Source: a virus
IMG/VR virus record: IMGVR_UViG_3300026512_000004
Coordinates: 1 to 20,652 of that record
Direction: 5' to 3' (one strand)
DNA: 20,652 bases
Under the pieces are notes generated by a model. The model did no database searches and was not told the origin of the DNA. It worked only from the letters and a program-made list of their open reading frames with translations. The position numbers and the translations under genes were made by a program. This document shows, piece after piece, positions 2 through 20,652 of the stretch. The number at the start of each line of letters is the position of its first letter. The stretch's first letter is position 1.

Positions 2-1372
2 GACAGTAAAAGTAACGAGGAATTCTATGATAGATTACATACTTTAGCACGTAAATTGTTCTTCTACGCAAGTTTAAAACCTATCACTGTTAACCTTGAT
101 GATTTGATGAAGGCGAGACGTAAAGTTAAGGAGTTACCTCATAATCCTATTGTAGGTAGTTATCTTGTTGAGATGATTACGGATCAAGCGTTGGAAAATA
201 TATCTGGAACCGATTTGGATATTCTGTACAAATCAGGATCACGTTTATCTCGTGAACAGTTTAGGAAAGCTTGTGTTATTGGTGGATATGTAGCAGATGT
301 ACACAATAAGGTGTTACCGAAACCTATTATGAATTCCGTAATTGAAGGGTTGCCTGAAAAAGATTTCTTTCTTGCTGCACAAGGTACACGTAAAGCGTTG
401 ATAGATAAGTCCATATGGACACCAAGGTCTGGTTATTTGGAGAGAACTTTGGTGTTAACATTGACTGCCGTAGAAATCAGTGAAGATGATTGTGGTGACG
501 AGTTTGGTCTGAAGATTAAAATACCGAGTCAGTTCGTCAAGTACTTTAAAAACAGATATTGGAGATATCCCGGAGAAACAGAATGGAGACAAGGACAACC
601 ACCTGCAGAACAAGATATAGAGTTAAGGTCACCAATCACTTGTAAAGCTGAATGGCCGAGATTATGTGCAAAATGTGCTGGTAAATTTCCGCTGAAGCAT
701 ATTGGAGTTATAGCGGCACAGTGTATTGCAGAACGTTTAACACAGTTAATTTTAAGAACCTTTCATACATCTGGAGCGGCAAGTTTAACAATTGATAAGG
801 AAGTCTTACAACTCATTAAAGAAAATATTGTTGACTGGACTCAAAAATCTATCCTTTTGAAGAAGTGTAGTAAAATCCAGCGCATCATAGATGTCACTAA
901 CCCGATACATGTAGAATATAAAGATGATGTAGTCGAATTAATTTATAGTGAACAAGTATTAGATAACGCGGACATTATTGAAAGATTGAACACATTGAAA
1001 TCGCTTTTCAGAGAGACAGAGAATCCAAATCCACCTCAAGATGTATTACTTTGGTTATTAAAAGAGTACACTAAGATTGGTGATATATTTGCGGTACTGA
1101 TTGAAGTATTACTTTCTATGTTGTATTGGTACAAAGACGGAAATCGTTATGTGCCGTTTCGCAAGCCTGCTTTAGGCAAGTTGATTATACCTTCTTTGAG
1201 GCGTATACCCGGTTTAATTTCTACATGTTTAGGCATGTTATATATGCCAAATTACAAGACTTTCTTAGAGTATTTACAAAATCCAACTAGTGTAGGCAGT
1301 ATTCATGAAATACTTTGGGAGCGCAATTTTGATTATCTGAAAGCTCTGCAAAATGAACGTACTAGAGTTTAG
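2..1372 (+). CDS. Phage RNA polymerase beta' subunit, C-terminal part (set 1), 5'-truncated by the window
   Basis: This is the C-terminal portion of a split beta' subunit of a phage multi-subunit RNA polymerase. The frame is open from base 2, so the true start lies upstream; a TTG at 56 is only the first start-like codon. Bridge-helix-like sequence precedes SGYLE (428-442), matching the bacterial NSGYLTRR region. The second beta' zinc site is complete: Cys in DDCGD (491-493), then a C-x7-C-x2-C group (641-676). GVIAAQ leads into the trigger-loop start LRTFHTSG (752-775), with the Arg and His that bacterial enzymes use in catalysis. It overlaps the next gene by 20 bp. The beta' N-part carrying DFDGD for this set is not in the window. 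Family assignment is secure; whether this is the virion or non-virion polymerase is not. Confidence 0.93.
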   Translation, partial: DSKSNEEFYDRLHTLARKLFFYASLKPITVNLDDLMKARRKVKELPHNPIVGSYLVEMITDQALENISGTDLDILYKSGSRLSREQFRKACVIGGYVADVHNKVLPKPIMNSVIEGLPEKDFFLAAQGTRKALIDKSIWTPRSGYLERTLVLTLTAVEISEDDCGDEFGLKIKIPSQFVKYFKNRYWRYPGETEWRQGQPPAEQDIELRSPITCKAEWPRLCAKCAGKFPLKHIGVIAAQCIAERLTQLILRTFHTSGAASLTIDKEVLQLIKENIVDWTQKSILLKKCSKIQRIIDVTNPIHVEYKDDVVELIYSEQVLDNADIIERLNTLKSLFRETENPNPPQDVLLWLLKEYTKIGDIFAVLIEVLLSMLYWYKDGNRYVPFRKPALGKLIIPSLRRIPGLISTCLGMLYMPNYKTFLEYLQNPTSVGSIHEILWERNFDYLKALQNERTRV

Positions 1373-2300
1373 ACAAAAAGATTACGACAGAATTTTCACA
1401 ACATACATACCTACATTAGTAAAAATAAAATACCCGGATGCTACTAACATAAAGATTGAAAAAGAAGAAGTATGTACATATACAAGTTGGTGGTATCGGA
1501 TAAAATGTACATTTGATTGTGTGAAAGGAACAGTTGAACAAACAGTTATGATTCCTATACTTGAAAACCAGCTAATGAAGTTGCGGGGTACATATTATAT
1601 ACCAAGATATTGGCTGGTTTCTGCACCTTTAGTTCGTCGTAAAAAGACAGTCGTAATATGGTCCTGGTTGAAACCAATAATAGTAGATATTATGAAGGAT
1701 AGAGTTTATTTTCAAGTAGTTAGGGAAACAAAACCGAGCGTTAATATTGACGAGGACTTCAGTACCTTTATGAATACTATTGGTTGTTCTGATGAAGAAT
1801 GTCCTTTGCGTAGTGAATGTAGATTGACAGCGAGAAATGAGTTCAAATATGATTTTAAGATGATTAACGACATTTTCTTCGATGATTGGACATTACGAGT
1901 ATATACGGATTGGTTTCCGAATGTTGAAAAACACTGTGCCTTCCGTTACTTTGTTGAAACGGTTTTTACGGATAAGTGTACAGATTTAAATGATATGCGT
2001 CAGAAACGTTTATCCTGTTTTGAAAATTGGTTCAAAAGTTTAATACTGTTAAGCGATTGGAGTCGGACACATTTAGTAGATTTCGAGAATTTATTAGCAG
2101 TTCCAGAAGCTAATCCGTTGAGCATAATAATATTGTCTCTAAAATGTTATGAAGTTGGTTCCTCTTTGGAATCGATTAAGTTTAATGAAAGTTTTGAATA
2201 CATAATTTGTCCAGTTTCGTTATCCGATCAGGAACCGTTGAAGTATTCTACACTTTTACCTGAAGTAGAAGTTAATGAGATTGGACGTTTCTTAAAATGA
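1353..2300 (+). CDS. Phage RNA polymerase beta subunit, N-terminal part (set 1), reduced
   Basis: Probable N-terminal portion of the split beta subunit, 315 residues. Residues 67-85 (IPILENQLMKLRGTYYIPR) correspond to the bacterial beta segment near VINGTERVIVSQLH and to residues about 438-458 of the long beta at 16230. Near the end, YIICPV followed later by NEIGRFL fits the bacterial GRICPIETPEG...NEYGFL region. No GPGG fork-loop motif is visible, and the span between these landmarks is much shorter than in bacterial beta, so lobe or protrusion sequence has been lost. A cluster C-x4-C-x5-C (in CSDEECPLRSEC) has no known role here. The ATG lies inside the beta' C gene and has no clear Shine-Dalgarno. 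The stop overlaps the next start as ATGA. Assignment rests on position plus weak motifs. Confidence 0.75.
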   Translation: MNVLEFRQKDYDRIFTTYIPTLVKIKYPDATNIKIEKEEVCTYTSWWYRIKCTFDCVKGTVEQTVMIPILENQLMKLRGTYYIPRYWLVSAPLVRRKKTVVIWSWLKPIIVDIMKDRVYFQVVRETKPSVNIDEDFSTFMNTIGCSDEECPLRSECRLTARNEFKYDFKMINDIFFDDWTLRVYTDWFPNVEKHCAFRYFVETVFTDKCTDLNDMRQKRLSCFENWFKSLILLSDWSRTHLVDFENLLAVPEANPLSIIILSLKCYEVGSSLESIKFNESFEYIICPVSLSDQEPLKYSTLLPEVEVNEIGRFLK

Positions 2301-3994
2301 TAGCATTAGGGCCACCTTTTACGGCACAAACGGATACAACACGTTTACAAATGGCTACGAAACAATTTGCTCAGACTTTAGTACATGAGACCTGTGAAAT
2401 ACCTTATGTGATAACACGTGAAATGCTTGGTTTATCTTTTCCTCCTTTAGTTATACGTGCTCATAAGGATTGTGAAGTTGAGAAATATGGCAGGTTATTG
2501 TTAGTCGATGATAAAGTATATTGGGTGGAAGATTTCCTCGCGGGTACACCCTTACGTTACGTGAAAACAGGTAAAGTACATGAAGGAGAAGTTATTTGTG
2601 AATATGTAGGGTTCAAAAACGGTATTGTTACTTCTGGTTGGAACAGTGTTGTTGCTTTTCTACCATTCTTTGGATATAATTATGAAGACGCTATTGTTGT
2701 GTCAGAACGTTTTGCTAAGAAAACTGTCCACACTACTGTTGAAGAATATTTGATACCAGTATACGAAGACACCACTATCTATGAAGCTCCAGATAAAATA
2801 CATTGTGAAGGTAATATCAAATTTAGATGGTCTTCTAAGACAACTATAGATACCATTTCTGATTTAGTTGATTTTATATTCGGTAGAAGTGCAAATGATG
2901 AACTTGTAATTGAAAATGCTAAATGGATACAAATACGTACTTATAAGATAGCAAGAAAACCTAAATTGTTATCAAAAAGTACAGAAGAGATAGTTAGTAA
3001 ACTGTATAAACAATATGTTGCTCAGTTAAGAGGTGAAGTAGAAGCTGTAAGTAAGGTTTTGCCTACATTTGTTCACGATTATTTGAACAGATTGATCATC
3101 ACAATGGACGATGTCCGGATTAATGACTTGTTCCCTTATCGTAGTAAATTACAGTACATCATTCACGTAATCGCTAGATTCGACAAAGATTTAAAAGTTG
3201 GTGATAAGTTATGCAATAGGTATGCAAATAAAGGAGTTGTGTCTCTTATAATTCCAAATGAATTAACTCCAGAATATCAAGATACAGATGGATCTTGGAA
3301 GAAGATAGAAGTTTTATTAAACCCATTAGGACTTTTCGCGAGAATGAATATGGGCCAGGTCTGGGAGTTGTATATTGCTCGTATTGTTAAGAAGTTGTGG
3401 TCCGAAGGTGATGAGAAGAATTTCCAGAAACTGTGCGAGTTGCTGAAAGCACCAGAACAAGAGTTCAAACCATATTTAATAGTTGATAAAATTTCTTACT
3501 TCGATGTTGACCGTGTTTATGCATTTATCAACGAGCAATTAGGTGGAACCGTTACCAAAGTTCGATACAAGAGGGAGTTGTTGGAGTGGTTGAAAGATAA
3601 TTATGGTGCTGATTTTGATTGGCCAATAACTGGTGACGTATACGTACAAGCAAGTGTTGGTATTCAGTATATACAGAAGTTAAAACAAACTGCAGAATCT
3701 AAAATCAATGTTAGAGACTTAGGCCCGTACAGAATAATAACAAAACAGCCCACACGTGGTAAAAAGAAATCTGGTGGTTCACGTATCGGTTACATGGAAA
3801 TAGATGCGTTAATAGCACACGGTGCATTAGACACGTTAAAAGAGTTAACAACTATAAAATCTGATTGTGTAGACGAAAAGGTTAAAATGGTGAAAGATAT
3901 GGTGTCAGATAGGAAACCCGATTTGAAAAATGTCAAATCCTACACGAAGAGGACCGTTGATCACATAATGGCTGCGTTATCGGAGATGTTGTAG
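2297..3994 (+). CDS. Phage RNA polymerase beta subunit, C-terminal part (set 1)
   Basis: C-terminal portion of split beta, 565 residues, contributing much of the catalytic face of the polymerase. The start IALGPPF...RLQMATKQFAQ matches bacterial [22 protein letters not shown], so this gene begins where the upstream one ends. GYNYEDAIVVSERF (126-139) is the bacterial GYNFEDSILVSERV. The two lysines contacting nucleic acid and NTP are present as GDK (K304) and ANKG (K312) with the usual spacing of eight. NPLGLFARMNMGQ matches NPLGVPSRMNIGQ, and SGGSRIGYMEIDALIAHGA matches GGQRFGEMEVWALEAYGA near the C-terminus. Translation probably couples to the upstream gene through ATGA. It closes the set 1 gene group; a 52-bp gap follows. 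Confidence 0.94.
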   Translation: MIALGPPFTAQTDTTRLQMATKQFAQTLVHETCEIPYVITREMLGLSFPPLVIRAHKDCEVEKYGRLLLVDDKVYWVEDFLAGTPLRYVKTGKVHEGEVICEYVGFKNGIVTSGWNSVVAFLPFFGYNYEDAIVVSERFAKKTVHTTVEEYLIPVYEDTTIYEAPDKIHCEGNIKFRWSSKTTIDTISDLVDFIFGRSANDELVIENAKWIQIRTYKIARKPKLLSKSTEEIVSKLYKQYVAQLRGEVEAVSKVLPTFVHDYLNRLIITMDDVRINDLFPYRSKLQYIIHVIARFDKDLKVGDKLCNRYANKGVVSLIIPNELTPEYQDTDGSWKKIEVLLNPLGLFARMNMGQVWELYIARIVKKLWSEGDEKNFQKLCELLKAPEQEFKPYLIVDKISYFDVDRVYAFINEQLGGTVTKVRYKRELLEWLKDNYGADFDWPITGDVYVQASVGIQYIQKLKQTAESKINVRDLGPYRIITKQPTRGKKKSGGSRIGYMEIDALIAHGALDTLKELTTIKSDCVDEKVKMVKDMVSDRKPDLKNVKSYTKRTVDHIMAALSEML

Positions 3995-4046
3995 TCGATA
4001 TTGACACGTCGCCTTTACACTTCTTTTTTTGTTTTGAGAGGAAAGT
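3995..4046 (+). promoter_or_regulatory. Intergenic gap with TTGACAC element, T-rich tract and ribosome binding site
   Basis: This is one of only three gaps above 50 bp. It holds TTGACAC (4001-4007), a run of T (4024-4030) and GAGAGG (4036-4041) correctly placed before the ATG at 4047. TTGACA resembles a host -35 box, but no matching -10 box sits 16-18 bp downstream. No stable hairpin precedes the T run, so it is not called a terminator. The same TTGACAC occurs in the gap before 9346, 41 bp upstream of that ATG compared with 46 bp here. The ribosome binding site is clear; the promoter idea is weak. Confidence 0.35.
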
Positions 4047-6084: not shown

Positions 6085-6460
6085 AGAGCTGGTAGAATTG
6101 TTCCGTCAAAAAGTACACGAAAAAACACAAAACAAAGAACTGACATTATATGCGATTGGTTCTACACTTTTTGAAGGTGGTATGATGCCACTCAATAGAG
6201 TTGTCAAAGGAAAAGGATTACCTAGATATGATACTGTTGAAAAATGGTTTAACGAGATTGGTTACGATGTACACATTGTAATAACACCTAAAAACGATTC
6301 TGAGGTTAAAGAGTTGAGCGATAGATTAAATAGAGAGGCTATGGATAGACTTTTTGATCAAATCACCAATATGACTACTACTGTCAGACGTGGTGGTAGA
6401 ATTGGTCGTATGATTGAAGATATAGTAGAACAAATGGCGAAACAACAAAGTAGTGAGTAA
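6074..6460 (+). CDS. Small Cro/C1-like helix-turn-helix protein
   Basis: 128 residues. Residues about 22-70 follow the Cro/C1 (XRE) pattern: LTLYAIG as helix 2, a short turn, a recognition-type stretch ending NRVVKGKGLPRYDTVEKW (compare SRILKGKGNPSLDTLEKL), then FNEIGYDVHIVI like the usual 'LGYEL-x-V' ending. The C-terminal half is helical and charged, with a basic RRGGRIGR patch at about 105-112, which could serve dimerisation or DNA contact. GGAGGG at 6063-6068 gives a well-spaced ribosome binding site for this ATG, inside the preceding nuclease gene. The stop and next start overlap as TAATG. It could be a regulator of the structural run, but a virion role cannot be excluded because its neighbours are tail-like genes. 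Confidence 0.55.
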   Translation: MTFKELVELFRQKVHEKTQNKELTLYAIGSTLFEGGMMPLNRVVKGKGLPRYDTVEKWFNEIGYDVHIVITPKNDSEVKELSDRLNREAMDRLFDQITNMTTTVRRGGRIGRMIEDIVEQMAKQQSSE

Positions 6461-7413
6461 TGCAAGTCTACGACAAAATTGATACGATAAACAGTCATCT
6501 ACAAGATATTATCGATCATAAAGAACAGGTTGCGATTAGTAATGGTAATACGTTAACCTACAATTACACGTATAATCACACACCATTAACTCAAGGTAAG
6601 ACGTATTTAAAATTCACAAAAAATGGTTCTGAAATTATAGTTGGTCCAGATACTCCGACTGATGATGATACAGGTATTATACAAACTGTCGACGTTGTAG
6701 TAAACATAGTTTCCTATTTAACCGGACAATTGGAAATAACGTTCACTACAGCACCAGATAATGGAACTCCTATTTTCGTCGTATCAGGATACACATTTGA
6801 TGATGTAGATGAGTGCATTGATACACAAAATAATTTGAACAATGTGAAATTAGTTTTACAAAATAATGAAACGAATATAACTGATAATTTTGATATGTTT
6901 TTTGGCAGTTCTAACGCTATGATTCAGACTACACAATCAGAGCAACTGGAGCAAAATTGTATTTTACAAGGGAAAACAATATCCTGTCTATATCAAGGCT
7001 ATTTTCTCGACGATCTCGTGAATTTAGTAGGCATTGACTTGGTGAACAGTTTAGATGAGCTAAATGAGAGGTTAAGCAACGTAGAACCAAGCATAAATAA
7101 TCTTCTTGACATACGTAATCAAATACTCGATTTTCTCAACACGGCAAATAAAGAAATAACGGCTAAGGTAATGGCAGCAAAGATGGGTGTTAACCACCAG
7201 GACGAGTTATTTGCGAGTTACGGAACAATTTATGAAATGAAAGGTGGACAAGATTTGTATGCAAAAATGTCAGCGTATTTTCAGGCGCAACAATTCAATA
7301 ATAAGGTTGTATCAAGTATAATAGCTGAGGCACGTGAATATTTAGATAGTAATATTGCACCATTGACAAATCAACTTAGTACAAATCTTGCGAACTTAGG
7401 TTGTAATGCCTAA
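6460..7413 (+). CDS. Probable tail/baseplate-associated structural protein
   Basis: 317 residues. The N-terminal part (about 25-110) looks like a beta-sandwich of the type found in phage baseplate and fibre-attachment proteins: NGNTLTYNYTYNH, then TGIIQTVDVVVNIVSYLTGQ, then LEITFTTAPDNGTPIFVVSGY. The last two resemble the frequent 'NYKTGEI-x-V-x-F-x-TAP-x-NGT' repeat of such proteins. From about 185 onward it is mainly helical, with heptad-like NSLDELNERLSNVEPSINNLLDIRNQI suggesting a coiled coil and trimer formation. No enzyme motif is seen. It begins in a TAATG overlap with the preceding gene and overlaps the PAAR gene by 8 bp, placing it directly before the spike tip. The exact virion position is unknown. 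Confidence 0.5.
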   Translation: MQVYDKIDTINSHLQDIIDHKEQVAISNGNTLTYNYTYNHTPLTQGKTYLKFTKNGSEIIVGPDTPTDDDTGIIQTVDVVVNIVSYLTGQLEITFTTAPDNGTPIFVVSGYTFDDVDECIDTQNNLNNVKLVLQNNETNITDNFDMFFGSSNAMIQTTQSEQLEQNCILQGKTISCLYQGYFLDDLVNLVGIDLVNSLDELNERLSNVEPSINNLLDIRNQILDFLNTANKEITAKVMAAKMGVNHQDELFASYGTIYEMKGGQDLYAKMSAYFQAQQFNNKVVSSIIAEAREYLDSNIAPLTNQLSTNLANLGCNA

Positions 7414-7705
7414 AGCAGCACGTTTGACAGATATGACGATCGGCATTTGTTGTTGTCATGGTGGATGTATACCGATGATGGGTGTCATTGTGACTAGCTC
7501 TTCGAATACAATTACCGACAACCTATTACAAGCAAGAGTCACGGATTTGGTACTAGGTTTATGTGGACATATTGGACTTATTGTTACGGGAAGCGGTGAC
7601 GTTATTACGAATAACTTACGAACTGCACGTGTTGGGGACTTAACTGCTGGCTGTCTAATAACGACTATAGTAACAGGAAGTCCAGATACAATAGTTGACG
7701 GTTGA
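7406..7705 (+). CDS. PAAR-type spike-tip protein
   Basis: 99 residues with the threefold repeat of PAAR proteins, which cap the membrane-piercing spike of contractile tails and type VI secretion systems. The three repeats begin AARLTDM (4-10), QARVTDL (42-48) and TARVGDL (73-79). Each is followed by Gly-rich strands such as GVIVTSSS, GLIVTGSGDVITNN and TIVTGSPDTIVDG. Candidate metal ligands are the C15-C16-C17-H18 cluster, C21, C53, H55 and C83; PAAR tips usually bind one zinc through His and Cys. There is no C-terminal toxin extension, so this is the plain structural form, as in T4 gp5.4. Its gene lies between a probable baseplate protein and a probable connector protein. The stop TGA shares one base with the next ATG. 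Confidence 0.88.
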   Translation: MPKAARLTDMTIGICCCHGGCIPMMGVIVTSSSNTITDNLLQARVTDLVLGLCGHIGLIVTGSGDVITNNLRTARVGDLTAGCLITTIVTGSPDTIVDG

Positions 7706-8403
7706 TGCAAAATTGGAATAATGTCTTAAGCTACATTAAATCGCATTTAGGAGCACCGGTTAATGAACTAGAGTTAACCGATGAACAGATAATACGATAC
7801 ATACAAGAACACACATTAGTAGAGTTTTCGAATTATGTACCCCATAAGAAATACGAAGTAATAACAAGTAGTAATCTGGTACAAGATTATCCTGTTCCAA
7901 AATACGAGATACCTACAGACGATCCGATATTGGATGTAATGGAAGTGTACTACAATAATGATTACAGTACAGGACTTGAGTCATTGGCTGCTGCACTTGG
8001 TACACGTACAACATTGCCCGCAGTGAGGCTTGCTTTAGAAGCGCAAGTAAGACTTGACATTGCTAAATACTTTGCGCCTGCTATTACCTTTGAGTTCGAA
8101 TCACCTAAGTATCTATATATAACACCTAAAGTAGACATAGCACTAGTACGTTATGGTACAGTCCATAAGAACTTAAATACTATACCGGCTGACATGTATC
8201 AACTGTTCAAACGATTGGCTTTAGCTGATATTATGATTTGGTTAGGTAGTATAAGATCCAAGTTTGAGTCGTTAGCAACACCAGTTGCTCAAGTTCAGTT
8301 AAATTGGCAGCAACTATATCAAGAGGGACAACAAATAAGAGCAGAAGTAACACAAATGTTAAATTCATTGCCACCTGACCGATTTGTAATTTGGGTAGGA
8401 TGA
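7705..8403 (+). CDS. Probable neck/connector-type virion protein
   Basis: 232 residues from the ATG at 7705; a TTG one codon earlier is a less likely start. ELTDEQIIRYIQEHTLVEFSNYVP near the N-terminus resembles the acidic helix that opens many phage neck, connector and tail-completion proteins. It is followed by a strand, then DPILDVMEVYYNND, like the 'V-x-D-V-x-x-V-Y' segment of those proteins. The C-terminal helix LALADIMIWLGSIRSKF, then VQLNWQQLYQEGQQIRAEVTQML, fits the 'AKLILGRIRSKF ... L-x-x-EG' ending common in large-phage structural genes. No enzymatic motif is present. It overlaps the next gene as ATGA. Virion protein is likely; the specific role is a guess from pattern similarity. 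Confidence 0.45.
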   Translation: MQNWNNVLSYIKSHLGAPVNELELTDEQIIRYIQEHTLVEFSNYVPHKKYEVITSSNLVQDYPVPKYEIPTDDPILDVMEVYYNNDYSTGLESLAAALGTRTTLPAVRLALEAQVRLDIAKYFAPAITFEFESPKYLYITPKVDIALVRYGTVHKNLNTIPADMYQLFKRLALADIMIWLGSIRSKFESLATPVAQVQLNWQQLYQEGQQIRAEVTQMLNSLPPDRFVIWVG

Positions 8404-9260: not shown

Positions 9261-9272
9261 AACTAAGGTTTT

Positions 9273-10977: not shown

Positions 10978-10980
10978 CCT

Positions 10981-12267
10981 ATGCCTCTCACACTTAAGCT
11001 TATTGATATCGACAAATTAATCGAACAAGAAAACCTTAAAGAAGTTAAATCTGCCAAACCATATATACGTGAACGTGTAGGTCGATTTGATCCCGAAGGA
11101 CTTTGGTCAGAGGAGATTTTTGGACCTGTTGGTAGTGAAGAAAGACGTAAAAAGTTTGCCTATGTGAATTTAGGAACAGTTATTATACATCCCCAGTTAT
11201 ATCCTGTAGTTGGTCGTCTCTCACCTTCTTTCCAGAAATGTTTAACAGGTAAGGGTAAATTTAAAGTACAAAATGGTAAACTTGTTCAAAGTGATGATGG
11301 TGGTTTCGGACCTCTTTTCATTTACGAAAATTTCGATAAAATTGATTGGTCTCAATATGAACTTAAGGATCCGAGAGCAGTCAAGGCTATATTGAAATAT
11401 GGTAAAAAGATGTTTTACGATAAATGGTTGATACTTCCTGCAGGTGTGCGTGACATATTACAAGTAGGTAAAACCCAACGTGTTCAGTACTCTGAAATTA
11501 ACATGTTATATGTTCAGTTAGTCTCTTTAGTAACAACCGAGGCTAAAAGTATATCTAAATACAGTTTGTCCGTTGCTGTTCAGGAAGTTATTAATAAGAT
11601 AGCTGCGTGGATAAAGAATAGGATGAAAGGTAAGTCTGGTGCTATACGTGGCATGGTACTTAGGAAAACCGTGGACTTTTGTGCAAGAGGTACAATTGTT
11701 GGTAATCCGAAACTTGATATTGACCAGATAGAACTACCGTGGTATGTATGTATCAAGTTATTTGAACCTTTTGTCATACACAAGTTAATGAAAGAGCGTC
11801 AAGACTTAATGCAAATCATTGCTGATGTGTTGGAACTAGAATCTACCCCGAATGTAACTGATTTACAAAGATTTTTACGTGAGGTTGCTGATAATAAGGG
11901 AACAACGATACCACCCTTTTTGCGCGATCAACTACGTGAGTTAGTTGCTGAAATTGTGACAGATAAATTAGTACTTTGTAAACGTGATCCAGTTGAAACA
12001 CGAGCAAACTGGTTTGCTGCTCGAGTTGTAGTCAGTGATGGTACTTATTTCGGTATACATCCATCTATGTGTACTAGACTTCAAGGAGATTTTGATGGTG
12101 ACGCAATTGGTGTTTACGCTGTTTTAACGGAGGAAGCACAGAAAGAGGCAGAGAAGTTGTTACCAAGCAAGTCCAGAACATCTTGGTTATCCGTGAAGAA
12201 CTATGGAGACCAACATCACACTGTAGAATTAGATGCAGCAGCTATAATTTATTACGCAACCTCGTAG
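10981..12267 (+). CDS. Phage RNA polymerase beta' subunit, N-terminal part (set 2), catalytic
   Basis: 428 residues forming the clamp and active-site half of split beta'. FDPEGLWSEEIFGP (36-49) matches the bacterial 'KPE-x-GLFC-x-RIFGP' opening. Residues 220-243 (GAIRGMV...RKTVDFCARGTIVGNP) match the switch-2 block GKRVDFSGRSVI. VLCKRDPVETRANWFA matches VLLNRAPTLHRLGIQA. QGDFDGDAIGVY carries the magnesium-binding aspartates D370, D372 and D374 of the universal DFDGD motif. The N-terminal zinc ribbon of bacterial beta' is absent: no cysteine group follows the IFGP block. The chain ends at LDAAAIIYYATS, just after the equivalent of bacterial 'VLGLYYMT', where phage beta' is known to be split. 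The C-half is at 13744, with a helicase gene between them. Confidence 0.95.
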   Translation: MPLTLKLIDIDKLIEQENLKEVKSAKPYIRERVGRFDPEGLWSEEIFGPVGSEERRKKFAYVNLGTVIIHPQLYPVVGRLSPSFQKCLTGKGKFKVQNGKLVQSDDGGFGPLFIYENFDKIDWSQYELKDPRAVKAILKYGKKMFYDKWLILPAGVRDILQVGKTQRVQYSEINMLYVQLVSLVTTEAKSISKYSLSVAVQEVINKIAAWIKNRMKGKSGAIRGMVLRKTVDFCARGTIVGNPKLDIDQIELPWYVCIKLFEPFVIHKLMKERQDLMQIIADVLELESTPNVTDLQRFLREVADNKGTTIPPFLRDQLRELVAEIVTDKLVLCKRDPVETRANWFAARVVVSDGTYFGIHPSMCTRLQGDFDGDAIGVYAVLTEEAQKEAEKLLPSKSRTSWLSVKNYGDQHHTVELDAAAIIYYATS

Positions 12268-12271
12268 ACCA

Positions 12272-13738
12272 ATGCCTGATTTTGGAGTAGTTTGGGGTGC
12301 ACCATTATCGACACAGTATCAACCACAACAATCTGATGCAGTGGATAATCCTTGTAAACAACTTGATCACAATCAAAAACGGTTATACGATAGGTTAAGT
12401 CGTGGATTTGATGTAATAGTTGCATGGAGCCCATCTGCTGGTAAAACGCGTCCTATTGTTTGTTGGGCATTGGAACAACTACATCCTTTTCTACAGCGTC
12501 ATCAGGTTACTGTAGCAGATCCCAGTCCTATAATTAAAAACATGATTTACGATGCTGTAAGCAAAGGTGTCATAAGACAAGTTATTTGGTTAGTTCCAAT
12601 TAAACAACTATTAGAGGGGATAGCTTCTGACTTAGCGGGATCTATATTAGATGTCATACGGATTTATTATCCTGATTATAAAAGCACAAGTTTAATACCA
12701 GGACGCGAATTTGTAGCAACTATGGGTGAAGGTCAGTATACTGGTGATTTAGACAAGTGTCCATTTGTAGTTGCCATTTATGAGTCATTTGCCGAACACA
12801 TCATTAAATATCAACATCATCCATTGTTGATTGTATTTGACGAGACACAGGAAGTTTATGTCCAAGATAATCAGCGCAAATCATTACGTAAAGCACTTGG
12901 TACTATATTACAAGGATTGAAAGCTCGTTGGAAAAATACGAGATTTGTTATGTTAACTGGTAGTTTACATTCTGCTGATATTGCGCAAGCATATGAATTC
13001 CTTACAGCTTATTTCGGCAATCAACGTAAAATACTTGCAGATTATGTTGATCAACCTAATAGGTCACATTTAATTATCATACCAGATCCACATGTACGTG
13101 ATCCTCAAACTATTAAATACTATGTAACACAGTTGAAAAAAGGTACCTGTATTATTTTGTTTTCTAAACGACTGATAGATGAGTACATGAATTGGGCTCT
13201 ATCACGATTGCCTATTGATCAATCTGTATATACGGAACGTGTGACTGTTAACGGTCAGACTTATCATGTACGTGATGTGCTTAAATTTTTACCTAAGAGA
13301 TTAGCCGAATTAGCAGTACGTCGTGTTACCTATCTTTACCGTGATCTTGACCGTGAATATCTACAGGCTTTACCTTGGATACAAGCATTATTTAGTCAGG
13401 GTATTATAAGAGTTGCATTTGCTACTGATGCTATAGGGAAAGGAGTCACACTTGATATACAGACCTTGATAATACCAACTATAAAGAAGACTGGTGGTAA
13501 ATTGTCACCTAGTGATCTAATACAGTTAGTACACAGAGCAGGTAGAGGTAAACAGCCTGTGGCAAAGATTATTTGTCATCCAGATGACTACGATGTTATT
13601 GTCAAAGCAGCGTTAGCCAATAGGGACACATTTGTAGAACCTGGTACAGTAAAACTTGATAAAATTGATACATTGTTAGTATTTTTAAGTTCAATATTTC
13701 GATCTCTTAGACAATCTAGTGACCACACATTAGCGTAG
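12272..13738 (+). CDS. SF2 DNA/RNA helicase
   Basis: 488 residues with the full superfamily 2 motif series, indicating an ATP-driven nucleic-acid translocase. Walker A is WSPSAGKT (52-59), motif Ia VIWLVPIKQL, Walker B VFDETQ (D190, E191; DETQ instead of DEAD/DEAH), motif III LTGS (228-231), motif IV CIILFSK, motif V FATDAIGKGVTL (383-394) and motif VI QLVHRAGRG (418-426, with R422 and R425 as arginine-finger candidates). The motif V/VI wording is closest to Ski2/Suv3-like helicases. It lies 4 bp after beta' N and 5 bp before beta' C of set 2, so it is almost surely co-expressed with that polymerase. It may help open or clear template DNA, or be packaged with the enzyme; this is inferred from position only. 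Confidence 0.92.
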   Translation: MPDFGVVWGAPLSTQYQPQQSDAVDNPCKQLDHNQKRLYDRLSRGFDVIVAWSPSAGKTRPIVCWALEQLHPFLQRHQVTVADPSPIIKNMIYDAVSKGVIRQVIWLVPIKQLLEGIASDLAGSILDVIRIYYPDYKSTSLIPGREFVATMGEGQYTGDLDKCPFVVAIYESFAEHIIKYQHHPLLIVFDETQEVYVQDNQRKSLRKALGTILQGLKARWKNTRFVMLTGSLHSADIAQAYEFLTAYFGNQRKILADYVDQPNRSHLIIIPDPHVRDPQTIKYYVTQLKKGTCIILFSKRLIDEYMNWALSRLPIDQSVYTERVTVNGQTYHVRDVLKFLPKRLAELAVRRVTYLYRDLDREYLQALPWIQALFSQGIIRVAFATDAIGKGVTLDIQTLIIPTIKKTGGKLSPSDLIQLVHRAGRGKQPVAKIICHPDDYDVIVKAALANRDTFVEPGTVKLDKIDTLLVFLSSIFRSLRQSSDHTLA

Positions 13739-13743
13739 ACAAT

Positions 13744-15507
13744 ATGGCTACCAAGTATATAACTACTTTAAGTCAAGTTTACAACGAATTATCGCAAGGT
13801 GCAAAACTGAAAGATAAGTATAAATTTCGTCACGCTAAGAAAACTAAGGATCAAGAAATTGTCACAACTTTAGGACGCATTTGGTTTAATTTACTTTTAC
13901 CAGAAGATTATCCGTTTGTAGATGAACCGATTGGGAAAAAGATGTTAAACAACAAAATACTGAAAAATATACTTGATAAATATGGTCCAGAGGAAGCAGC
14001 AAAGGTTGTTAAACGTATTTACGAAGAAGCATTTAAACTATCTTGTTATTTGCCTGTAACATTTGAATTTGAGAAAATTGAGCCACCTAAGTATTTGTTA
14101 GAAAAACGCAATGAACTCGTTAAGTGGATTGAACGAGAAGATCCTAAACCTGACGAGGTAATGCAAAAGATTAAGGAACTTCAAAAAGAGTACGAAAAGT
14201 GGCTTCAGGAAAATGATGTCTTACTTTACTACGCAGTTAAAGGTGGTGCAAAGGGCAGCTTGGCAGATTGGTCGTCAATGACGTTGATACGTGGTTATAC
14301 GACTAATGTTAAAGGTGAAATCTCTAAAAAGCCTATCATACATTCTATGAACGAAGGTTACGACATAGAAGAGTGGCTAAACGCAGCTAACCAATCTCGT
14401 CGTGCTCTATATCTTCAGTCCACACACGCTGCAGAACCTGGATATCTTGCAAGACGTGTTGTCTTTGCCTGTGATCATATTGAAATATCTTCTGATGACT
14501 GTGGAACCACTAAATATTGGAAGATTCACGTAAATGAGCGCATTGCACAAAGTATTAAAGGGCGTTACTACATAGATGGTAGTAAATTAAAAAGAATAGA
14601 TAACCCCGAAAAATTGATTGGTAAAGACATACTTCTACGTTCACCATTGTATTGCAAAGATAAAAATGGAATATGCGCAATTTGTTATGGTGATCTTTGG
14701 AAAGAGTTAGAAACTAGAAGAGTTGGTATTATTGCCGGTGCTATCACTAACACAGTATTATTAGGGTTAAATCTAAAAGCCAAGCACAGGATTATGTTAT
14801 TTGACATAGAAAAAGTAAATTTCATTGAAAGATTAAAAGGTAACGACGAAGCGTTTAAACTCTTAGACATCAAAGAGACTGAGATACGTGCTAAGGAACC
14901 TAGCATTATCTATATAGATAAAAGCGAATACAGAGAATTAGTAGACCTTCCGGACTATATAGTAATACCGGGTGTCTTCTCAATCCAAGTTGGAAACAAG
15001 GAGGTATCTATAGGTGTTCCGTTTAATGTAAAAGTGTTTAAAACTGCGAATACAGAAGAAACGGAAGAAGATATACTAATACGCTATGACAAGGGTGATA
15101 TTATTATTAAACAAGAATATGCAGACGTATCACCCTCTTTCGATGCAGTGGAGAAGTTATTAGAAGCAAGAGCTAAGTACATTAAGAACCCAGAAATTTT
15201 GGTCAATTTAGTTCATGAATTGATGTCGCGTGCTAAACCATTAGACTTAGTACATTGTGAAGTTATAGTTGCTAATATGTTTAGACGTGCAGATAATCCT
15301 AGAGAACCTTGTAGGATAAGAGGAAGTTATAAAAATGCGGTTGTGATAGGCCAAACTAAATTACCGTTTATTGACAGTTGGTTGAAAGCAGTTGCATTCG
15401 AGAATATAGATTATGCATTGACAAATGCATTGATAGATGGAAAATCCGCCAAAGGAACACCGTTGGAGAAAGTATTATTGGCCGACCTACTCGGAAGTGA
15501 GAGTTAA
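13744..15507 (+). CDS. Phage RNA polymerase beta' subunit, C-terminal part (set 2)
   Basis: 587 residues. TTLGRIWFNLLLP (41-53) matches bacterial TTVGRALLWEIVP, so it resumes exactly where the beta' N gene stops. A charged helical segment (about 110-155) resembles the rim-helix region. Bridge-helix sequence follows (GGAKGSLADW; GYLARRV). The second zinc site is complete: C253 in SSDDCGT, then C304, C311 and C314. The trigger-loop start reads GLNLKAKHR (341-349), where bacteria have LTMRTFH: the histidine (H348) is kept and the arginine is lysine (K345). The end matches the beta' C-terminal domain: HCEVIVANMFR, then LPFIDSWLKAVAFENIDYALTNALIDGK. It is 150 residues longer than the visible part of the set 1 counterpart. 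The last 71 bases may be overlapped by the next gene. Confidence 0.95.
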   Translation: MATKYITTLSQVYNELSQGAKLKDKYKFRHAKKTKDQEIVTTLGRIWFNLLLPEDYPFVDEPIGKKMLNNKILKNILDKYGPEEAAKVVKRIYEEAFKLSCYLPVTFEFEKIEPPKYLLEKRNELVKWIEREDPKPDEVMQKIKELQKEYEKWLQENDVLLYYAVKGGAKGSLADWSSMTLIRGYTTNVKGEISKKPIIHSMNEGYDIEEWLNAANQSRRALYLQSTHAAEPGYLARRVVFACDHIEISSDDCGTTKYWKIHVNERIAQSIKGRYYIDGSKLKRIDNPEKLIGKDILLRSPLYCKDKNGICAICYGDLWKELETRRVGIIAGAITNTVLLGLNLKAKHRIMLFDIEKVNFIERLKGNDEAFKLLDIKETEIRAKEPSIIYIDKSEYRELVDLPDYIVIPGVFSIQVGNKEVSIGVPFNVKVFKTANTEETEEDILIRYDKGDIIIKQEYADVSPSFDAVEKLLEARAKYIKNPEILVNLVHELMSRAKPLDLVHCEVIVANMFRRADNPREPCRIRGSYKNAVVIGQTKLPFIDSWLKAVAFENIDYALTNALIDGKSAKGTPLEKVLLADLLGSES

Positions 15508-15673: not shown

Positions 15674-15736
15674 GTCCTTAGGAATACCTACTAATTTCTA
15701 TTTGTAAATTGTAGAAAATAGAGGGTAAGTCCTGAT
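15671..15736 (+). other. Structured intergenic segment before the nuclease gene
   Basis: This segment holds potential RNA hairpins. TAGGT (15671-15675) pairs with ACCTA (15686-15690). TTTCTAT (15695-15701) pairs with GTAGAAA (15711-15717), including one G-T wobble. An alternative pairing of AATTT (15693-15697) with AAATT (15706-15710) excludes the second stem. No T-run follows, so it is not an intrinsic terminator. GAGGG (15721-15725) is the likely, rather distant, ribosome binding site for ATG 15737. AT-rich sequence makes chance pairing possible. Confidence 0.4.
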
Positions 15737-16225
15737 ATGGCAAGTAACAAAGGTAAACAGAAGGGTAACAAATATGAACGCGATGTAGCTCGTAAACTTA
15801 GTCTCTGGATGTTTAATGATTCTGAAGCACTTTGGCGAAATAGTTCGTCTGGTGCCCGTGGTTATAAAGGCGACATAGTGCCCTACAAACCTATTCCATG
15901 GAAAAGATGGCCGTTTCTTGTTGAGGTTAAAGCAGGTTACTTAAGACAAATGCCTAAAGGTCTATCATATCCAAACATAGTAGAAGAGTGGTTGATTAAA
16001 GCATGTAACCAATTAGGTGGGCAACAAGAGTACGTCTTATTGATTATTAAGTTCCATAGATGTCGTGATGTTCTTATAACTACGAAAGCCAGTTTGATTA
16101 AAACTAGACCTTATTTTATCTTTCTACCTAATTCATCTAAAGTACGCGGTTATGTATACGACTTCGCTACTCTTCTTGCTTCACCTTTTCACAAAACTGT
16201 AAATATGAGAATACTCAAGATTTAA
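15737..16225 (+). CDS. PDDEXK-type nuclease, possibly Holliday-junction resolvase-like
   Basis: 162 residues. The N-terminus GKQKGNKYERDVARKLS has the basic lead and glutamate (E14) typical of archaeal Hjc-type resolvases and related PDDEXK enzymes. YKGDIVP supplies the metal-binding aspartate (D46) and FLVEVKAG supplies E63-x-K65. Together E...D...E-x-K forms the active site of this fold. EEWLIKACNQLGG follows, like the helix after the catalytic core, and strands such as YVLLIIKF and YFIFLP complete it. Length suits a single-domain enzyme. Likely substrates are branched or broken DNA during phage recombination and replication, though specificity cannot be read from motifs. It lies between beta' C and beta of polymerase set 2, 4 bp before the latter, so it is co-transcribed with them. 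Confidence 0.82.
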   Translation: MASNKGKQKGNKYERDVARKLSLWMFNDSEALWRNSSSGARGYKGDIVPYKPIPWKRWPFLVEVKAGYLRQMPKGLSYPNIVEEWLIKACNQLGGQQEYVLLIIKFHRCRDVLITTKASLIKTRPYFIFLPNSSKVRGYVYDFATLLASPFHKTVNMRILKI

Positions 16226-16229
16226 CGAT

Positions 16230-19200
16230 ATGGCGTTAATAAGTAAAATTCACATCAACGAACCAATCGACAGCCTTTACTTTGATCCCAACCATGCGCA
16301 TGTACTATTAGTGTTTTCAGATGCTAAACTATCCACAATAAAAGACTTGCCAATACACTGGTCACAGTGTAGGGCAACGTTAATACCACCTAGTATTAAC
16401 TACGGTCGTAGACGTGTTCTTAGTGGTCTAATTAGTAGGTATAAAAAGGAAATGCCAGAACAGAAATGGATGCTCACTTTTCCACGTCAAATTGAGAATA
16501 ATAAGTTGGTCATTTATGTTATTCATGCTAAAGACTTTGAATATGCCGATTGGATATATTGTAGATGTGGAAGTGAAAAGAAGTTTGTAGATACACTTTT
16601 TACTCGTGTACTCAATAGGTATTACGAAAGTATTAAGAGGAAGTATCCCTATGCCAAAGTACATTTTCTTTTTCATCATACAGACCCAACTAGTTCTTTA
16701 AGATCTGTTTTTGAATATTTAGCAGACAGGCCTCGTGTTTTAGAAGACTACAGAAAGTACATAACAGATGACGTGATACTTGGTGCTGTACCTAATAACA
16801 CTTTATTTGCTATTGTAGATTCTTTTGGCAGACTATCAAGACAAGCTTTGAAAACCATGTTGTTTACTACAGAAGTTGAACCCGAAGAAAAATCTACCAA
16901 ACCTATAAAAGTTAAAAACTCTTTTGTCAAGCCTATAGTTTCTAAGAGTTTACTAAAATCTGCTGTCGATGTTGCTGAAACTCCGAAAGGCAAACCTATC
17001 TACAAAGTTTCTATAACAGAATTAAAGAAAATTCTGCGTAAATATGGTATAAAAGATGAAGCTGCTATTGCTTTGGTAAAAGACGAAGTCGAAGATTATT
17101 TGAATAATGTAAAAGAAGTGAACCCAAATGATTTAGAGAGTGTTATTTTGGACGCAATTTATAGATCTGTTTATGGTACGGAGAGACCAGAAGGACAAGC
17201 TACTGACATTAAATCTTTAGTCGAAACATTGGCCGTTGAAAAGTTTGCCCGTAAATTATCCTATTCAAAGTCGCCAGCAATACCTTTAGATCCAAATGAA
17301 ATCATCGATTTGAAGGAATCTACATCTGCTTTTCGTCATGAAATAGAGTTCGAACATTGGGTTGATAAACACTTCACAGATCTTTTCAAGGCACTTGAAA
17401 CTAGACCTGATAATCCTGTTAAAGTACTTAAAATAGATCGTGAAATTATTGACGAACCTGATAACAGGTATATTAGATATACAGTTACCTTACAGAATAC
17501 TGATTGCGGTTCAAAGAAACCTTATCAAGTTGAATTAAAAGTACCCTATCCTATCAACGGTAGATACTACAGATTGAAAGGGAAACGTTATTTAATTGCT
17601 AATCAATTACACTTACGTCCTATTACTAAAACTAAGAAAAACGAAGTTCGTTTTCTGAGTGCATTCGCTACTATCACCATTAGACTTGTCAATACACGCT
17701 ATACTTTTGACGACATTGAGTTGATGTTAGATTATTTACAAAAGATTTTACCAGATAAAGTTAGAAAAGAAGATGGAGTTTGGGTCTTAGGCGATAATAA
17801 GATTTACTTAGATATTACAAGTCCCGAGATTGTTGTCAGTGAATCTAAACGTATTTATCAAGAAGGTGACACGTTTTTTGTCGAAGAAAATGGAGAAAAA
17901 AGAGAACTTCCCAAATATAAGAGTAGATCACACATATTGTTCGATTTTATTCGTAATTGGTGTATAGATACAACTGGTAAAGATATCCTGCGTCAGGGCA
18001 AAGCAGTACCTTACTTTCAAATTCACATAGCAGGCTTGAAAATGCCACTAATTATTTTCCTGGCTGAACGCATGGGACTTTTGACAGCTTTAAATAAGCT
18101 TAACATAGAGTTTCATATTGCCAAAAAGTTTGATAAAAGGTATACTGTTTCTGTTCCGCTAGAAGGCGGTAATTCTGTTTTTATTGTCGCTTCAAATACT
18201 AAAGAGGAATTTATTGTAAATGGGTTATGTGCTGTTAAAAAGATGCCTACTTTTAAAAATCCAGATGACTATCTTGAGTGGCGTAGGTTTGTGGTCGAAA
18301 GGTACGGTGACAAAATTAAATCTTTTGACGCTGCTGCCAAAAACTTCATAGATCCAATTACACGTGATTTATTACGTTTAGAGGGTAACCCGACCACTTT
18401 TCTTGATGTTATCACAGGACCGATGATCGATCGACTCGTAGATAAGAAGGCAGACGATATTTCCAATTTAGCCATCTATCGCGTGAGATTGTCTGAAATG
18501 CTTTATCACATTATTTTCACACAGATTATGCAAGCTCATTCTAGATATGCTACTAGATGTAAACAAGGTGATGAAAATGCTAGAATGGAGTTTAATTCTG
18601 ACTTTATCATTAACACGTTGTTGTCTGGTTCAGGCGTTTTGATGAACATAGAGCCGTTAAATCCTATGGAAGAAGTGATGCGTTCAAACCGTGTTATAAA
18701 GACCGGTCCTGGTGGAGTTCCCTCTAAACGTATGATTGCTTTAGCTCATAGGAATATTGACAAGTCACATATAGGTAATCTTGGTTTTGTATCCACTTCT
18801 GAATATCAGGACGTCGGTATTCAACTGTATTTAACTACTAATCCTAAAATAAGTAACAGATATGGCATTTTAGGGTTATCAAGCGTAAACAATAAGTGGG
18901 AAGTTGTCACTTGGGACGAAGCAACTATACCTTTTGTTAATGGCCTTGACACTACACGTGCTATAATGGCTACAACACATGCTAAACAGGTGTCGCCGTT
19001 GGTGTCCAGAGAGATACCTTACGTAATGACAGGTGCCGAATACGTAATACCACAGATTTCATCTGATAGATTTGTCATACGTGCCGAAAAACCAGGTGTT
19101 GTTGAGGAAGTTACGGAACATTACATCAAAGTACGTTATGACGATGGAACTGTTAGATATTACGATGTTTTTCCGAGAATTGCTAAGACAAAAAGATCAG

Positions 19201-20652
19201 CTACTGTCGTTCTTAATATGGAAACATTAAAACCAGGTGACCATTTTGAGAAGGGTGAATTGTTAGCTTGGACACAACATTTTAAGGATGGTGTCTATGC
19301 AACAGGTAAAAACCTAAAAATAGCTGTTATGAATTATCTTGGATATAACCACGAAGATGGTTATGTATTGACAGCTGACGCAGCTAGTAAATTGGAGGTT
19401 ACAACTGCTCAAGAAATAGAGGTTTTAATACCAGAAGATGCTAAAGTTTTACAGTTCATTGATAAAGTGGGATATGTAACAGCACCACAGGAAACCTTAT
19501 TGGAGTTTACGTATGACAAGTCTTTAGATGATTATATTCATGAATTAGAAGGTGAAACTGATGTAACTGATATCGATGATGATATGAGAAACAAGTTTTT
19601 CAGAATGTCTGGTAAGACTATCAAGGTTAAAAGTCCAGGTGGTCGTATTGTCGATATACGTATTTATATCAATAGTCCCAGAAAGGTAGATAAAAAGATT
19701 ATAGATGCTTGGAAAAGACTTACAGCAGTGCTTAAAGAGAAGATGACGTTGTGTTCTAAAGATGGTATTCCTGCTACCGACAACTTTGATAGCTCTGTGT
19801 TGAAAACCGGTATACATAAACACAGAGGTGTTCCTTTCAAAGGTGTAAAAATTGTCTTCTACATTAGTTCACCAAAACTAGTTGAAAAAGGTGACAAACT
19901 TGCAAACAGATACGGTGCTAAAGGTATTGTAACACATATCATAGAACCAGATTTCACACCGTATAGTGAATTTCTTGGTCCTCTGGACATCTTCATTTCT
20001 CCTTTGGGTATTTTTGGTCGTAAGAATATCGTATTTTTGAAAGAGATATATACTGGTAAAATAATGTACGTATTAAACCAACGTGTTAAAGAATGGTTGT
20101 CTACTAAAATGAAAACAAGCGAGATTGTATCACGTATTTGTGACGTTTTAAATGCTTTGGGTGCCAAGAGACAAGTTGATTCGCTTAAAAAGGAACTCAA
20201 ACAAGTTAGTAATGTGCGTAAATACTTACAAACTGTCCATATTCCATTGATAGTTCCACCACATACACAGATATCATTTAAGCAATTAGGTGAAGCAGCT
20301 AAATTACTGGGCATACCATTAGATGAACATGTTTATATTCCAGAATTAGGTGCTTGGACAAAACACAAAGTACCTGTTGGAGTATCCTACTACTACGTAT
20401 TAGAACATTATGGCGATCCAACTATAACTGCACGTGCCTCTGAGAAGGTTTCTATGTTAACAGGTCAACCTTTAAAAGGTCGTAGAAAGGGTGGTAAGGC
20501 GATTGCTATTGGTAATTTAGATGTGTATGCTATGCTATCTTGGAACGCGGATAATATACTGACAGAGTTGATGACTGTAAGATCTGATTATCCTGATGCT
20601 AAAATGCAAGTGATTCGTCAAATTATACGTGAAGGACGTGCTAATTTGCCGA
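16230..20652 (+). CDS. Phage RNA polymerase beta subunit, N and C regions in one chain (set 2), 3'-truncated by the window
   Basis: The frame is open from ATG 16230 to the window end, giving at least 1474 residues. Beta homology begins late: VPYPINGRYYRLKGKRYLIA (438-457) matches the bacterial segment ending in VINGTERVIVSQLH, at about residue 130 of E. coli beta. Some 300 N-terminal residues are therefore extra, with no domain I can name; they include CRCGSEKK and a helical KKILRKYG region. Then come KTGPGGVPSKRM (about 820-833, fork loop; bacterial LGPGGLTRERA), GYNHEDGYVL (E1042, D1043), GDKLANRYGAKG (K1223 and K1231, the catalytic-lysine pair), NPLG-like SPLGIFGRKN, and TGQPLKGRRKGGKAIAIGNLDVYA near the C-terminal clamp. 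The rifampicin-pocket sequence CPIETPEG is not conserved (GFVSTSEYQD). The ribosome binding site is weak. Confidence 0.94.
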   Translation, partial: MALISKIHINEPIDSLYFDPNHAHVLLVFSDAKLSTIKDLPIHWSQCRATLIPPSINYGRRRVLSGLISRYKKEMPEQKWMLTFPRQIENNKLVIYVIHAKDFEYADWIYCRCGSEKKFVDTLFTRVLNRYYESIKRKYPYAKVHFLFHHTDPTSSLRSVFEYLADRPRVLEDYRKYITDDVILGAVPNNTLFAIVDSFGRLSRQALKTMLFTTEVEPEEKSTKPIKVKNSFVKPIVSKSLLKSAVDVAETPKGKPIYKVSITELKKILRKYGIKDEAAIALVKDEVEDYLNNVKEVNPNDLESVILDAIYRSVYGTERPEGQATDIKSLVETLAVEKFARKLSYSKSPAIPLDPNEIIDLKESTSAFRHEIEFEHWVDKHFTDLFKALETRPDNPVKVLKIDREIIDEPDNRYIRYTVTLQNTDCGSKKPYQVELKVPYPINGRYYRLKGKRYLIANQLHLRPITKTKKNEVRFLSAFATITIRLVNTRYTFDDIELMLDYLQKILPDKVRKEDGVWVLGDNKIYLDITSPEIVVSESKRIYQEGDTFFVEENGEKRELPKYKSRSHILFDFIRNWCIDTTGKDILRQGKAVPYFQIHIAGLKMPLIIFLAERMGLLTALNKLNIEFHIAKKFDKRYTVSVPLEGGNSVFIVASNTKEEFIVNGLCAVKKMPTFKNPDDYLEWRRFVVERYGDKIKSFDAAAKNFIDPITRDLLRLEGNPTTFLDVITGPMIDRLVDKKADDISNLAIYRVRLSEMLYHIIFTQIMQAHSRYATRCKQGDENARMEFNSDFIINTLLSGSGVLMNIEPLNPMEEVMRSNRVIKTGPGGVPSKRMIALAHRNIDKSHIGNLGFVSTSEYQDVGIQLYLTTNPKISNRYGILGLSSVNNKWEVVTWDEATIPFVNGLDTTRAIMATTHAKQVSPLVSREIPYVMTGAEYVIPQISSDRFVIRAEKPGVVEEVTEHYIKVRYDDGTVRYYDVFPRIAKTKRSATVVLNMETLKPGDHFEKGELLAWTQHFKDGVYATGKNLKIAVMNYLGYNHEDGYVLTADAASKLEVTTAQEIEVLIPEDAKVLQFIDKVGYVTAPQETLLEFTYDKSLDDYIHELEGETDVTDIDDDMRNKFFRMSGKTIKVKSPGGRIVDIRIYINSPRKVDKKIIDAWKRLTAVLKEKMTLCSKDGIPATDNFDSSVLKTGIHKHRGVPFKGVKIVFYISSPKLVEKGDKLANRYGAKGIVTHIIEPDFTPYSEFLGPLDIFISPLGIFGRKNIVFLKEIYTGKIMYVLNQRVKEWLSTKMKTSEIVSRICDVLNALGAKRQVDSLKKELKQVSNVRKYLQTVHIPLIVPPHTQISFKQLGEAAKLLGIPLDEHVYIPELGAWTKHKVPVGVSYYYVLEHYGDPTITARASEKVSMLTGQPLKGRRKGGKAIAIGNLDVYAMLSWNADNILTELMTVRSDYPDAKMQVIRQIIREGRANLP

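What the first reader, a model, noticed from the sequence alone, without database searches (positions are those of the whole stretch)
2..20652. Two distinct split RNA polymerases within 21 kb, flanking a tail-gene block
Both sets have their own beta' C and beta sequences with separate zinc sites and catalytic motifs, so these are two enzymes, not fragments of one. Known phiKZ/AR9-type phages carry a virion and a non-virion polymerase, but in phiKZ the subunit genes are scattered over the genome. Here they cluster around structural genes, which suggests a different genome plan or a less-studied lineage.
Basis: partly seen in the sequence, partly recalled or inferred. Interest (0 to 1): 0.7.

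Follow-up and report, generated by a model that had tools for sequence, protein, structure and literature searches.

The report
Two half-split phage RNA polymerases
A phage fragment carries two different RNA-making enzymes of the kind giant phages use in turn during infection, and here their genes are only partly cut into pieces, which together with uncut relatives gives a way to test how this two-enzyme system arose.

Summary
The two polymerases are real and distinct (24-31% identity). Set 1 (2-3994) is the C-terminal part of beta', cut by the contig end, plus a beta split into adjacent betaN and betaC genes. Set 2 (10981-20723) is beta'N, a DEAD helicase, beta'C with the gp244-like tail still fused, an endonuclease and one unsplit 1497-aa beta. 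So 'split' is only half right. Set 2 is sister to the sampled virion RNAPs (vRNAP; bootstrap 97-99 in three concatenated trees, though not in beta alone). Set 1 looks like the non-virion type (nvRNAP): its beta is cut at the nvRNAP site and lacks the vRNAP-type beta extension; trees leave it unresolved. Clustering is not special: in phiKZ three subunit genes of both enzymes lie within 13 kb. Searching outward gave ten IMG/VR contigs with long RNAP genes; nine carry two RNAPs with mostly whole genes, one (A) probably akin to vRNAP, one (B) resembling nvRNAP. They resemble the published mReC phages. The data favour one old v/nv pair, cut later and stepwise; a 2026 review calls that origin unknown, so the question becomes testable. 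Roles in infection are inferred from orthology, not shown.

The parts
2..1372 (+). Set 1 beta' C-terminal part; open at the contig's left end
   Evidence: PF04998 1.3e-21; cellular-type trigger loop RTFHTSG and four zinc Cys
1353..2300 (+). Set 1 beta N-terminal subunit (betaN)
   Evidence: best of 26 sequences (20 of them shuffles) against the copy-B beta profile, 9.6 bits, E 2.4e-4, next best -1.2 bits; -4.2 bits with the copy-A profile; collinear alignment with eight B copies, 18-21% identity, 20 invariant columns; phmmer ranks all eight B copies above A copies, but weakly (7.3 bits at best)
2297..3994 (+). Set 1 beta C-terminal subunit (betaC), ATGA overlap with betaN
   Evidence: PF00562 7.5e-36, PF04560 6.7e-10; starts 13 residues ahead of an anchor motif, six other nv-type betaC 18-36 ahead of it
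6460..7413 (+). unknown protein in the structural block
   Evidence: no family below E 0.08
7406..7705 (+). PAAR spike-tip protein
   Evidence: PF05488 5.5e-13
7702..8403 (+). virion structural protein, head-tail adaptor-like
   Evidence: phrog_18911 2.8e-26, phrog_211 2.9e-10; homologue beside nv-type betaC in G011 and G013
10981..12267 (+). Set 2 beta'N with catalytic GDFDGD
   Evidence: PF00623 4e-18, phrog_2986 7.1e-48
12272..13738 (+). DEAD-box helicase gene between the two halves of set 2 beta'
   Evidence: PF00270 7.2e-7, PF00271 7.1e-5
13744..15507 (+). Set 2 beta'C with the gp244-like C-terminal part fused
   Evidence: phrog_2962 6.6e-36; residues 373-578 match phrog_2926, 2.1e-6
15737..16225 (+). 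PDDEXK endonuclease
   Evidence: PF24608 2.9e-9
16230..20652 (+). Set 2 beta, one unsplit gene, running to 20723 in the record (1497 aa)
   Evidence: PF00562 4.2e-25, phrog_3148 5.2e-54, both on the part inside the window; full length

Best explanation
The phage carries the two-polymerase system of phiKZ/AR9-type jumbo phages in a less fragmented state. Set 2 is the virion-type enzyme: by orthology it is packed in the head, injected with the DNA and transcribes early genes. Set 1 is the non-virion type: made from early genes, it transcribes later genes. Shown here: presence, gene structure, set 2's sister relation to vRNAPs, the beta cut site shared by set 1 and nvRNAPs, and a beta N-terminal extension present in set 2, vRNAPs and A copies. 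Inferred: packaging, timing and promoter use. The beta' cut of set 2, the gp244 cut and the beta cuts of other phages look like separate later events in genes that are still whole in related metagenomic phages.
For: Set 2 + six vRNAPs form a clade at 99/96 (39 rows) and 97/96 (28 rows), set 2 + four vRNAPs at 98/97 (23 rows). Set 2 beta' is cut where LPJP1 and S6 vRNAP-type beta'N end; R1-37's ends earlier in that alignment. Its trigger loop LKAKH resembles AR9 LKAFH and R1-37 MKSFH. Ahead of a conserved beta segment set 2 has about 330 aa, A copies 330 and vRNAPs about 350-490 (by the best-placed domain; stop-to-stop frames); eight B copies, AR9 nv betaN and E. coli have 15 or fewer. Set 1 betaC starts 13 residues ahead of an anchor motif; AR9 32, R1-37 31, phiKZ 27, JM-2012 18, JD-Fnp7 36, G011 26, each from its first Met; LPJP1's start is undetermined. 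Set 1 betaC scores higher on copy B than on copy A beta in each of nine contigs that hold both (B 112-146 bits, A 93-115). AR9's record labels subunits virion or non-virion.
Against: Set 1's place is unresolved: with B 66/2.7 in the best tree, with nv not rejected (p-AU 0.289; 0.30). Its trigger loop is cellular-type, unlike nvRNAP LSAKH. Beta alone leaves set 2 unresolved or with A and away from v (SH-aLRT 91); one beta'C tree leaves set 2 unresolved. Set 2 held with A is not rejected (p-AU 0.098), nor set 1 held with set 2 (p-AU 0.103). No nvRNAP fifth subunit was found with a phiKZ ORF that I took for gp68. No early-promoter word was found beyond the ribosome-binding site.
Confidence: 0.72

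Rival explanations
1. Set 1 is a separately captured RNAP, not an orthologue of nvRNAP; its beta split at the same place is convergence.
For: Cellular-type trigger loop; nearest by path to bacteria in one beta'C tree; unresolved at the base beside non-jumbo phage RNAPs.
Against: Falls with the nv/B/v/A sequences, apart from the YerA41, Arash and RHph types, at 97/96; betaN matches only the B-copy profile; shared cut site.
Confidence: 0.2
2. Sets 1 and 2 are duplicates made within this lineage.
For: Holding them together is not rejected (p-AU 0.103); nearest to each other by path in one beta tree.
Against: 24-31% identity; set 2 + v clade at 97-99 in three trees; different beta architecture.
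Confidence: 0.04
3. The splits in this contig are assembly errors or decaying genes.
For: Metagenomic contig; ATGA junction in set 1 beta.
Against: A 1.47-kb helicase gene separates beta'N and beta'C; G011 and G013 carry a 535-aa nv-type betaC, with a similar start where counted, in G011; DFDGD and GDK motifs are intact.
Confidence: 0.04

Closest known systems
vRNAP of phiKZ/AR9-type jumbo phages
   Same: sister clade to set 2; beta' cut after the DPBB barrel; changed trigger loop; long beta N-terminal extension; gp244-like part
   Different: known vRNAP core is at least five polypeptides (PMC7598289); set 2 has three, with unsplit beta and gp244-like part fused
nvRNAP of phiKZ/AR9-type jumbo phages
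   Same: beta cut at the same site; no beta extension (AR9 tested); separate betaN and betaC genes
   Different: set 1 betaN and betaC are adjacent and overlap; cellular-type trigger loop; beta' organisation and fifth subunit unknown here
mReC, multi-subunit RNAP-encoding Caudovirales (PMC7481178)
   Same: IMG/VR phages with beta and beta' genes, as in G001-G010; MCP of PF07068 and TerL of PF03237 also found in the window's record
   Different: in the parts read and by term search that paper mentions no second copy, no virion enzyme and no phiKZ; the window's genes are partly split
P23-45 TMP-fused vRNAP and nvRNAP (PMC10770324)
   Same: one phage, two two-barrel RNAPs, duplication inferred
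   Different: another RNAP type; [quoted passage not shown] vRNAP fused to the tape measure

Membership tests
jumbo-phage vRNAP | groups with virion-labelled RNAP subunits (set 2) | tested here: met
   99/96, 98/97, 97/96; as sister, not inside; not recovered by beta alone
jumbo-phage vRNAP | beta and beta' split into at least five polypeptides | tested here: not met
   three polypeptides; JD-Fnp7, L155, L156, L163 and L164 also have vRNAP-type beta' in one frame
jumbo-phage vRNAP | present in virions | not testable with these tools
   needs mass spectrometry
jumbo-phage nvRNAP | beta split at the nv site (set 1) | tested here: met
jumbo-phage nvRNAP | groups with nv-labelled subunits | tested here: inconclusive
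   p-AU 0.289 and 0.30; best tree puts it with B at 66/2.7
jumbo-phage nvRNAP | promoter-specificity fifth subunit (gp226/gp68) | tested here: inconclusive
   a phiKZ ORF taken for gp68 has no match in the record, but outside phiKZ it also finds only JM-2012, not AR9; record incomplete
mReC | encodes beta and beta' detectable by models of cellular subunits | tested here: met
   Pfam hits; the paper used COG models, not run here
mReC | MCP of PF07068 and TerL of PF03237 | tested here: met
   27.5 bits over cut-off 24.4; 53.1 bits over 22; PF07068 also passes in 5 of 11 other phages, AR9 among them, and in only 1 of 10 of G001-G010, so not discriminating
mReC | falls in the published mReC RNAP clade | not tested
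   the paper's sequences were not at hand by name

The most novel reading that the evidence does not exclude
The virion/non-virion pair arose once, before the mReC-like and phiKZ-type phages parted, as two whole-gene RNAPs; copies A and B of the metagenomic phages are vRNAP and nvRNAP in unsplit form, and the window's phage and G011 are intermediate stages of stepwise gene fission. The shared beta' cut site would then be repeated fission, not a cyanobacterial inheritance.
Probability: 0.5. Interest if true: 0.75.

Novelty: new variant of a known kind. Interest (0 to 1): 0.6.

Why it matters
Reviews of 2020 (PMC7598289) and 2026 (PMC13282480) state that it is unknown whether vRNAP and nvRNAP came from one duplication or two acquisitions. 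Phages with both enzymes whole or half-split give longer sequences and shared architecture (beta extension, cut sites) with which to decide. Two-gene phage RNAPs would also be simpler to express and study than five-piece enzymes.

Tried and rejected
Single-protein scans of IMG/VR with set 2 beta'N and set 1 betaC found no relative; alignments were needed. AlphaFold models of ORF 4047-5198 and of set 1 betaN had mean pLDDT 32 and 39 and were not used. hhalign of set 1 betaN against the B profile gave only E 0.045, score 23.9, against at most 18.6 for the four shuffles tried; a first hhalign run in a wrong mode was discarded. Word counting upstream of 40 genes gave only the ribosome-binding site AAAGGAGGT. 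Genes next to copy B (before beta', after beta) have no match below E 0.05 in the window's record. The 297-aa ORF before betaC in G011 is not betaN. A regex for the first beta motif matched nothing. AU tests for {SET2,v,A} and {SET1,SET2} on 39 rows did not finish and {SET1,B,nv} did not get under way there; 23-row versions were used. Start positions read off the global alignment were scattered by gap placement and were recounted.

Full report
What is there. The window is bases 1-20652 of a 122,127-base virus record. Two RNA polymerase (RNAP) sets are present. Set 1: beta' C-terminal part 2-1372, betaN 1353-2300, betaC 2297-3994. Set 2: beta'N 10981-12267, DEAD helicase 12272-13738, beta'C 13744-15507, endonuclease 15737-16225, beta 16230-20723. 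All are on the + strand. Between them lie an exonuclease (5182-6084), a PAAR protein (7406-7705), a structural protein (7702-8403) and unknown genes. The two sets share 31% identity over 185 positions of beta'C and 24% over 606 of beta.

Set 1's beta' runs off the contig; no second DFDGD motif was found among the ORFs of the record and PF00623 matches once, so half of one enzyme is not seen and a split there is unproven. Set 2's beta is a single 1497-aa gene. Its beta'C still carries the C-terminal part that in jumbo phages is a separate protein (SPN3US gp244 kind; phrog_2926 on residues 373-578; that phrog_2926 is the gp244 family is my inference). The review PMC7598289 (parts 1-2 of 6 read) gives at least five polypeptides for the vRNAP core and four for nvRNAP; set 2 has three.

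Which is which. References were phiKZ, AR9, phiR1-37, LPJP1, JM-2012 and JD-Fnp7. AR9's record labels virion and non-virion subunits; the other labels rest on clustering with AR9 and, for phiKZ, on recall. In concatenated trees (beta'N, beta'C, beta) set 2 is sister to the sampled vRNAPs: 99/96 in 39 rows, 98/97 in 23 rows, 97/96 in 28 rows. Singly, beta'N and beta'C agree at SH-aLRT 90 and 86, with G011 in the group, but beta leaves set 2 unresolved or with A at 91, and one beta'C tree leaves it unresolved. Set 1 lies in the wider clade (97/96) but is otherwise unresolved; with B copies it has 66/2.7, and nv is not rejected (p-AU 0.289).

Architecture helps. Set 1 betaC starts 13 residues ahead of an anchor motif, and nv-type betaC of AR9, R1-37, phiKZ, JM-2012, JD-Fnp7 and G011 start 18-36 ahead of it, counted from the first Met. 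The review says v and nv beta are cut at different sites. ORF 1353-2300 aligns collinearly with the N-terminal part of copy-B beta and ends shortly before set 1 betaC takes up; the B profile scores it 9.6 bits, best of 26 sequences of which 20 are shuffles, the A profile -4.2. An extension of about 330-490 aa ahead of a conserved beta segment is present in A copies, set 2 and vRNAPs, and absent in B copies, AR9 nv betaN and E. coli; no sequence similarity of the extension itself was found. Set 2's trigger loop is LKAKH, vRNAPs have LKAFH, MKSFH and the like; set 1, B copies and also most A copies have cellular RTFH-like loops.

Relatives. Scans with alignments gave 231 relatives of beta'N (80 kept) and 14 of beta. 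Ten contigs (G001-G010) carry long RNAP genes. Nine of ten have two beta genes; the tenth is a 17-kb fragment. Copy B is unsplit in all nine that have it: beta' 900-922 aa, beta 1010-1061 aa (open frames). Copy A beta' is one frame of 1003-1008 aa in six of ten and has its C-terminal part as a separate gene in four of ten (G009 is also cut at its start); copy A beta is 1363-1378 aa in eight of ten, a shorter 914-aa frame in G006 and cut by the contig end in G008. G004 and G005 give the same scores and are probably near-copies. The two loci lie about 22-44 kb apart. G011 (129 kb) has two sets split into more pieces.

One origin? With G011 included, {v, A, set 2, G11v} has 95/98 and appears in 947 of 1000 bootstrap trees; {nv, B, set 1, G11n} in 511. 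G011's pieces were assigned by single-gene trees, which leans this result. Without G011 and the fast phiKZ, JM-2012 and JD-Fnp7 rows {v,A,set 2} has 902 of 1000 and {nv,B,set 1} 99; without G011 and set 1, 526 and {nv,B} 268; {A,B} has 0 and 4. On 23 rows forcing {set 2,v,A} costs 1.3 log units (p-AU 0.435) and {set 1,B,nv} 5.2 (p-AU 0.329). By gene, beta'N joins A, v and set 2 at SH-aLRT 90, while beta joins A with set 2 but not with v; an earlier beta'C tree joined A and B at 80/83, against this reading. So A with v is moderately supported, B with nv is open.

Known work. mReC phages (PMC7481178; parts 1-2 of 6 read plus a term search) have RNAP beta and beta' apart from cells; 'phiKZ', 'virion', 'split' and 'two copies' do not occur in its main text. 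I take G001-G010 to be of that kind, untested by name. Whether v and nv arose by duplication is called unknown in PMC13282480 (2026, passages). PMC10770324 (sections 12-13 and passages) infers duplication for the different P23-45 pair and says many viruses encode two RNAPs; its supplementary list was not seen, so it may include such phages. Searches listed no paper whose title or abstract start describes unsplit v/nv RNAPs; papers not named here were seen as listings only, PMC9209446 and PMC12153180 as passages.

Clustering. In phiKZ nv betaC (63.3-66.6 kb), nv beta'C (66.6-68.7) and v beta'C (75.0-76.4) are neighbours, as are v beta and v beta'N (181.8-189.3); nv beta'N and nv betaN lie apart. 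The window, with 7 kb between its sets, is tighter but not of another kind.

Verdict. A real two-RNAP system of the jumbo-phage kind in a half-split state; set 2 virion type (well supported by concatenated sequence), set 1 non-virion type (probable). Roles in infection are inferred.

Noticed in passing
record 27978-31187 (L001:11979-15188): Anaerobic ribonucleotide reductase NrdD interrupted by what reads as two intein-like blocks; the best family match falls in three stretches.
   Followed up: no
record 44416-46359 and 35870-37165: Family B DNA polymerase apparently in two separate pieces: both match one 615-aa protein of G011, though the second piece had no PHROG match itself; a split PolB is listed as a core trait of RNAP jumbo phages in PMC7598289.
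   Followed up: partly
record 104366-105103 and 105368-106354: Large terminase in two neighbouring ORFs on the minus strand that both match one 562-aa protein of G011; an intervening element is possible.
   Followed up: no
L242-L244 (IMG/VR contigs): Open frames of 2021-2611 aa match both beta and beta' queries, so beta and beta' seem fused in one polypeptide; Arash fuses beta with beta'N.
   Followed up: no
L155, L156, L163, L164; JD-Fnp7 82846-85650: vRNAP-type beta' in one frame of about 935-950 aa with both halves matched; unsplit beta' is not confined to mReC-like phages.
   Followed up: partly
YerA41, Carin-5, RHph_Y65: 145-207 kb phages with RNAP genes of a cellular-type trigger loop, outside the jumbo v/nv clade.
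   Followed up: partly
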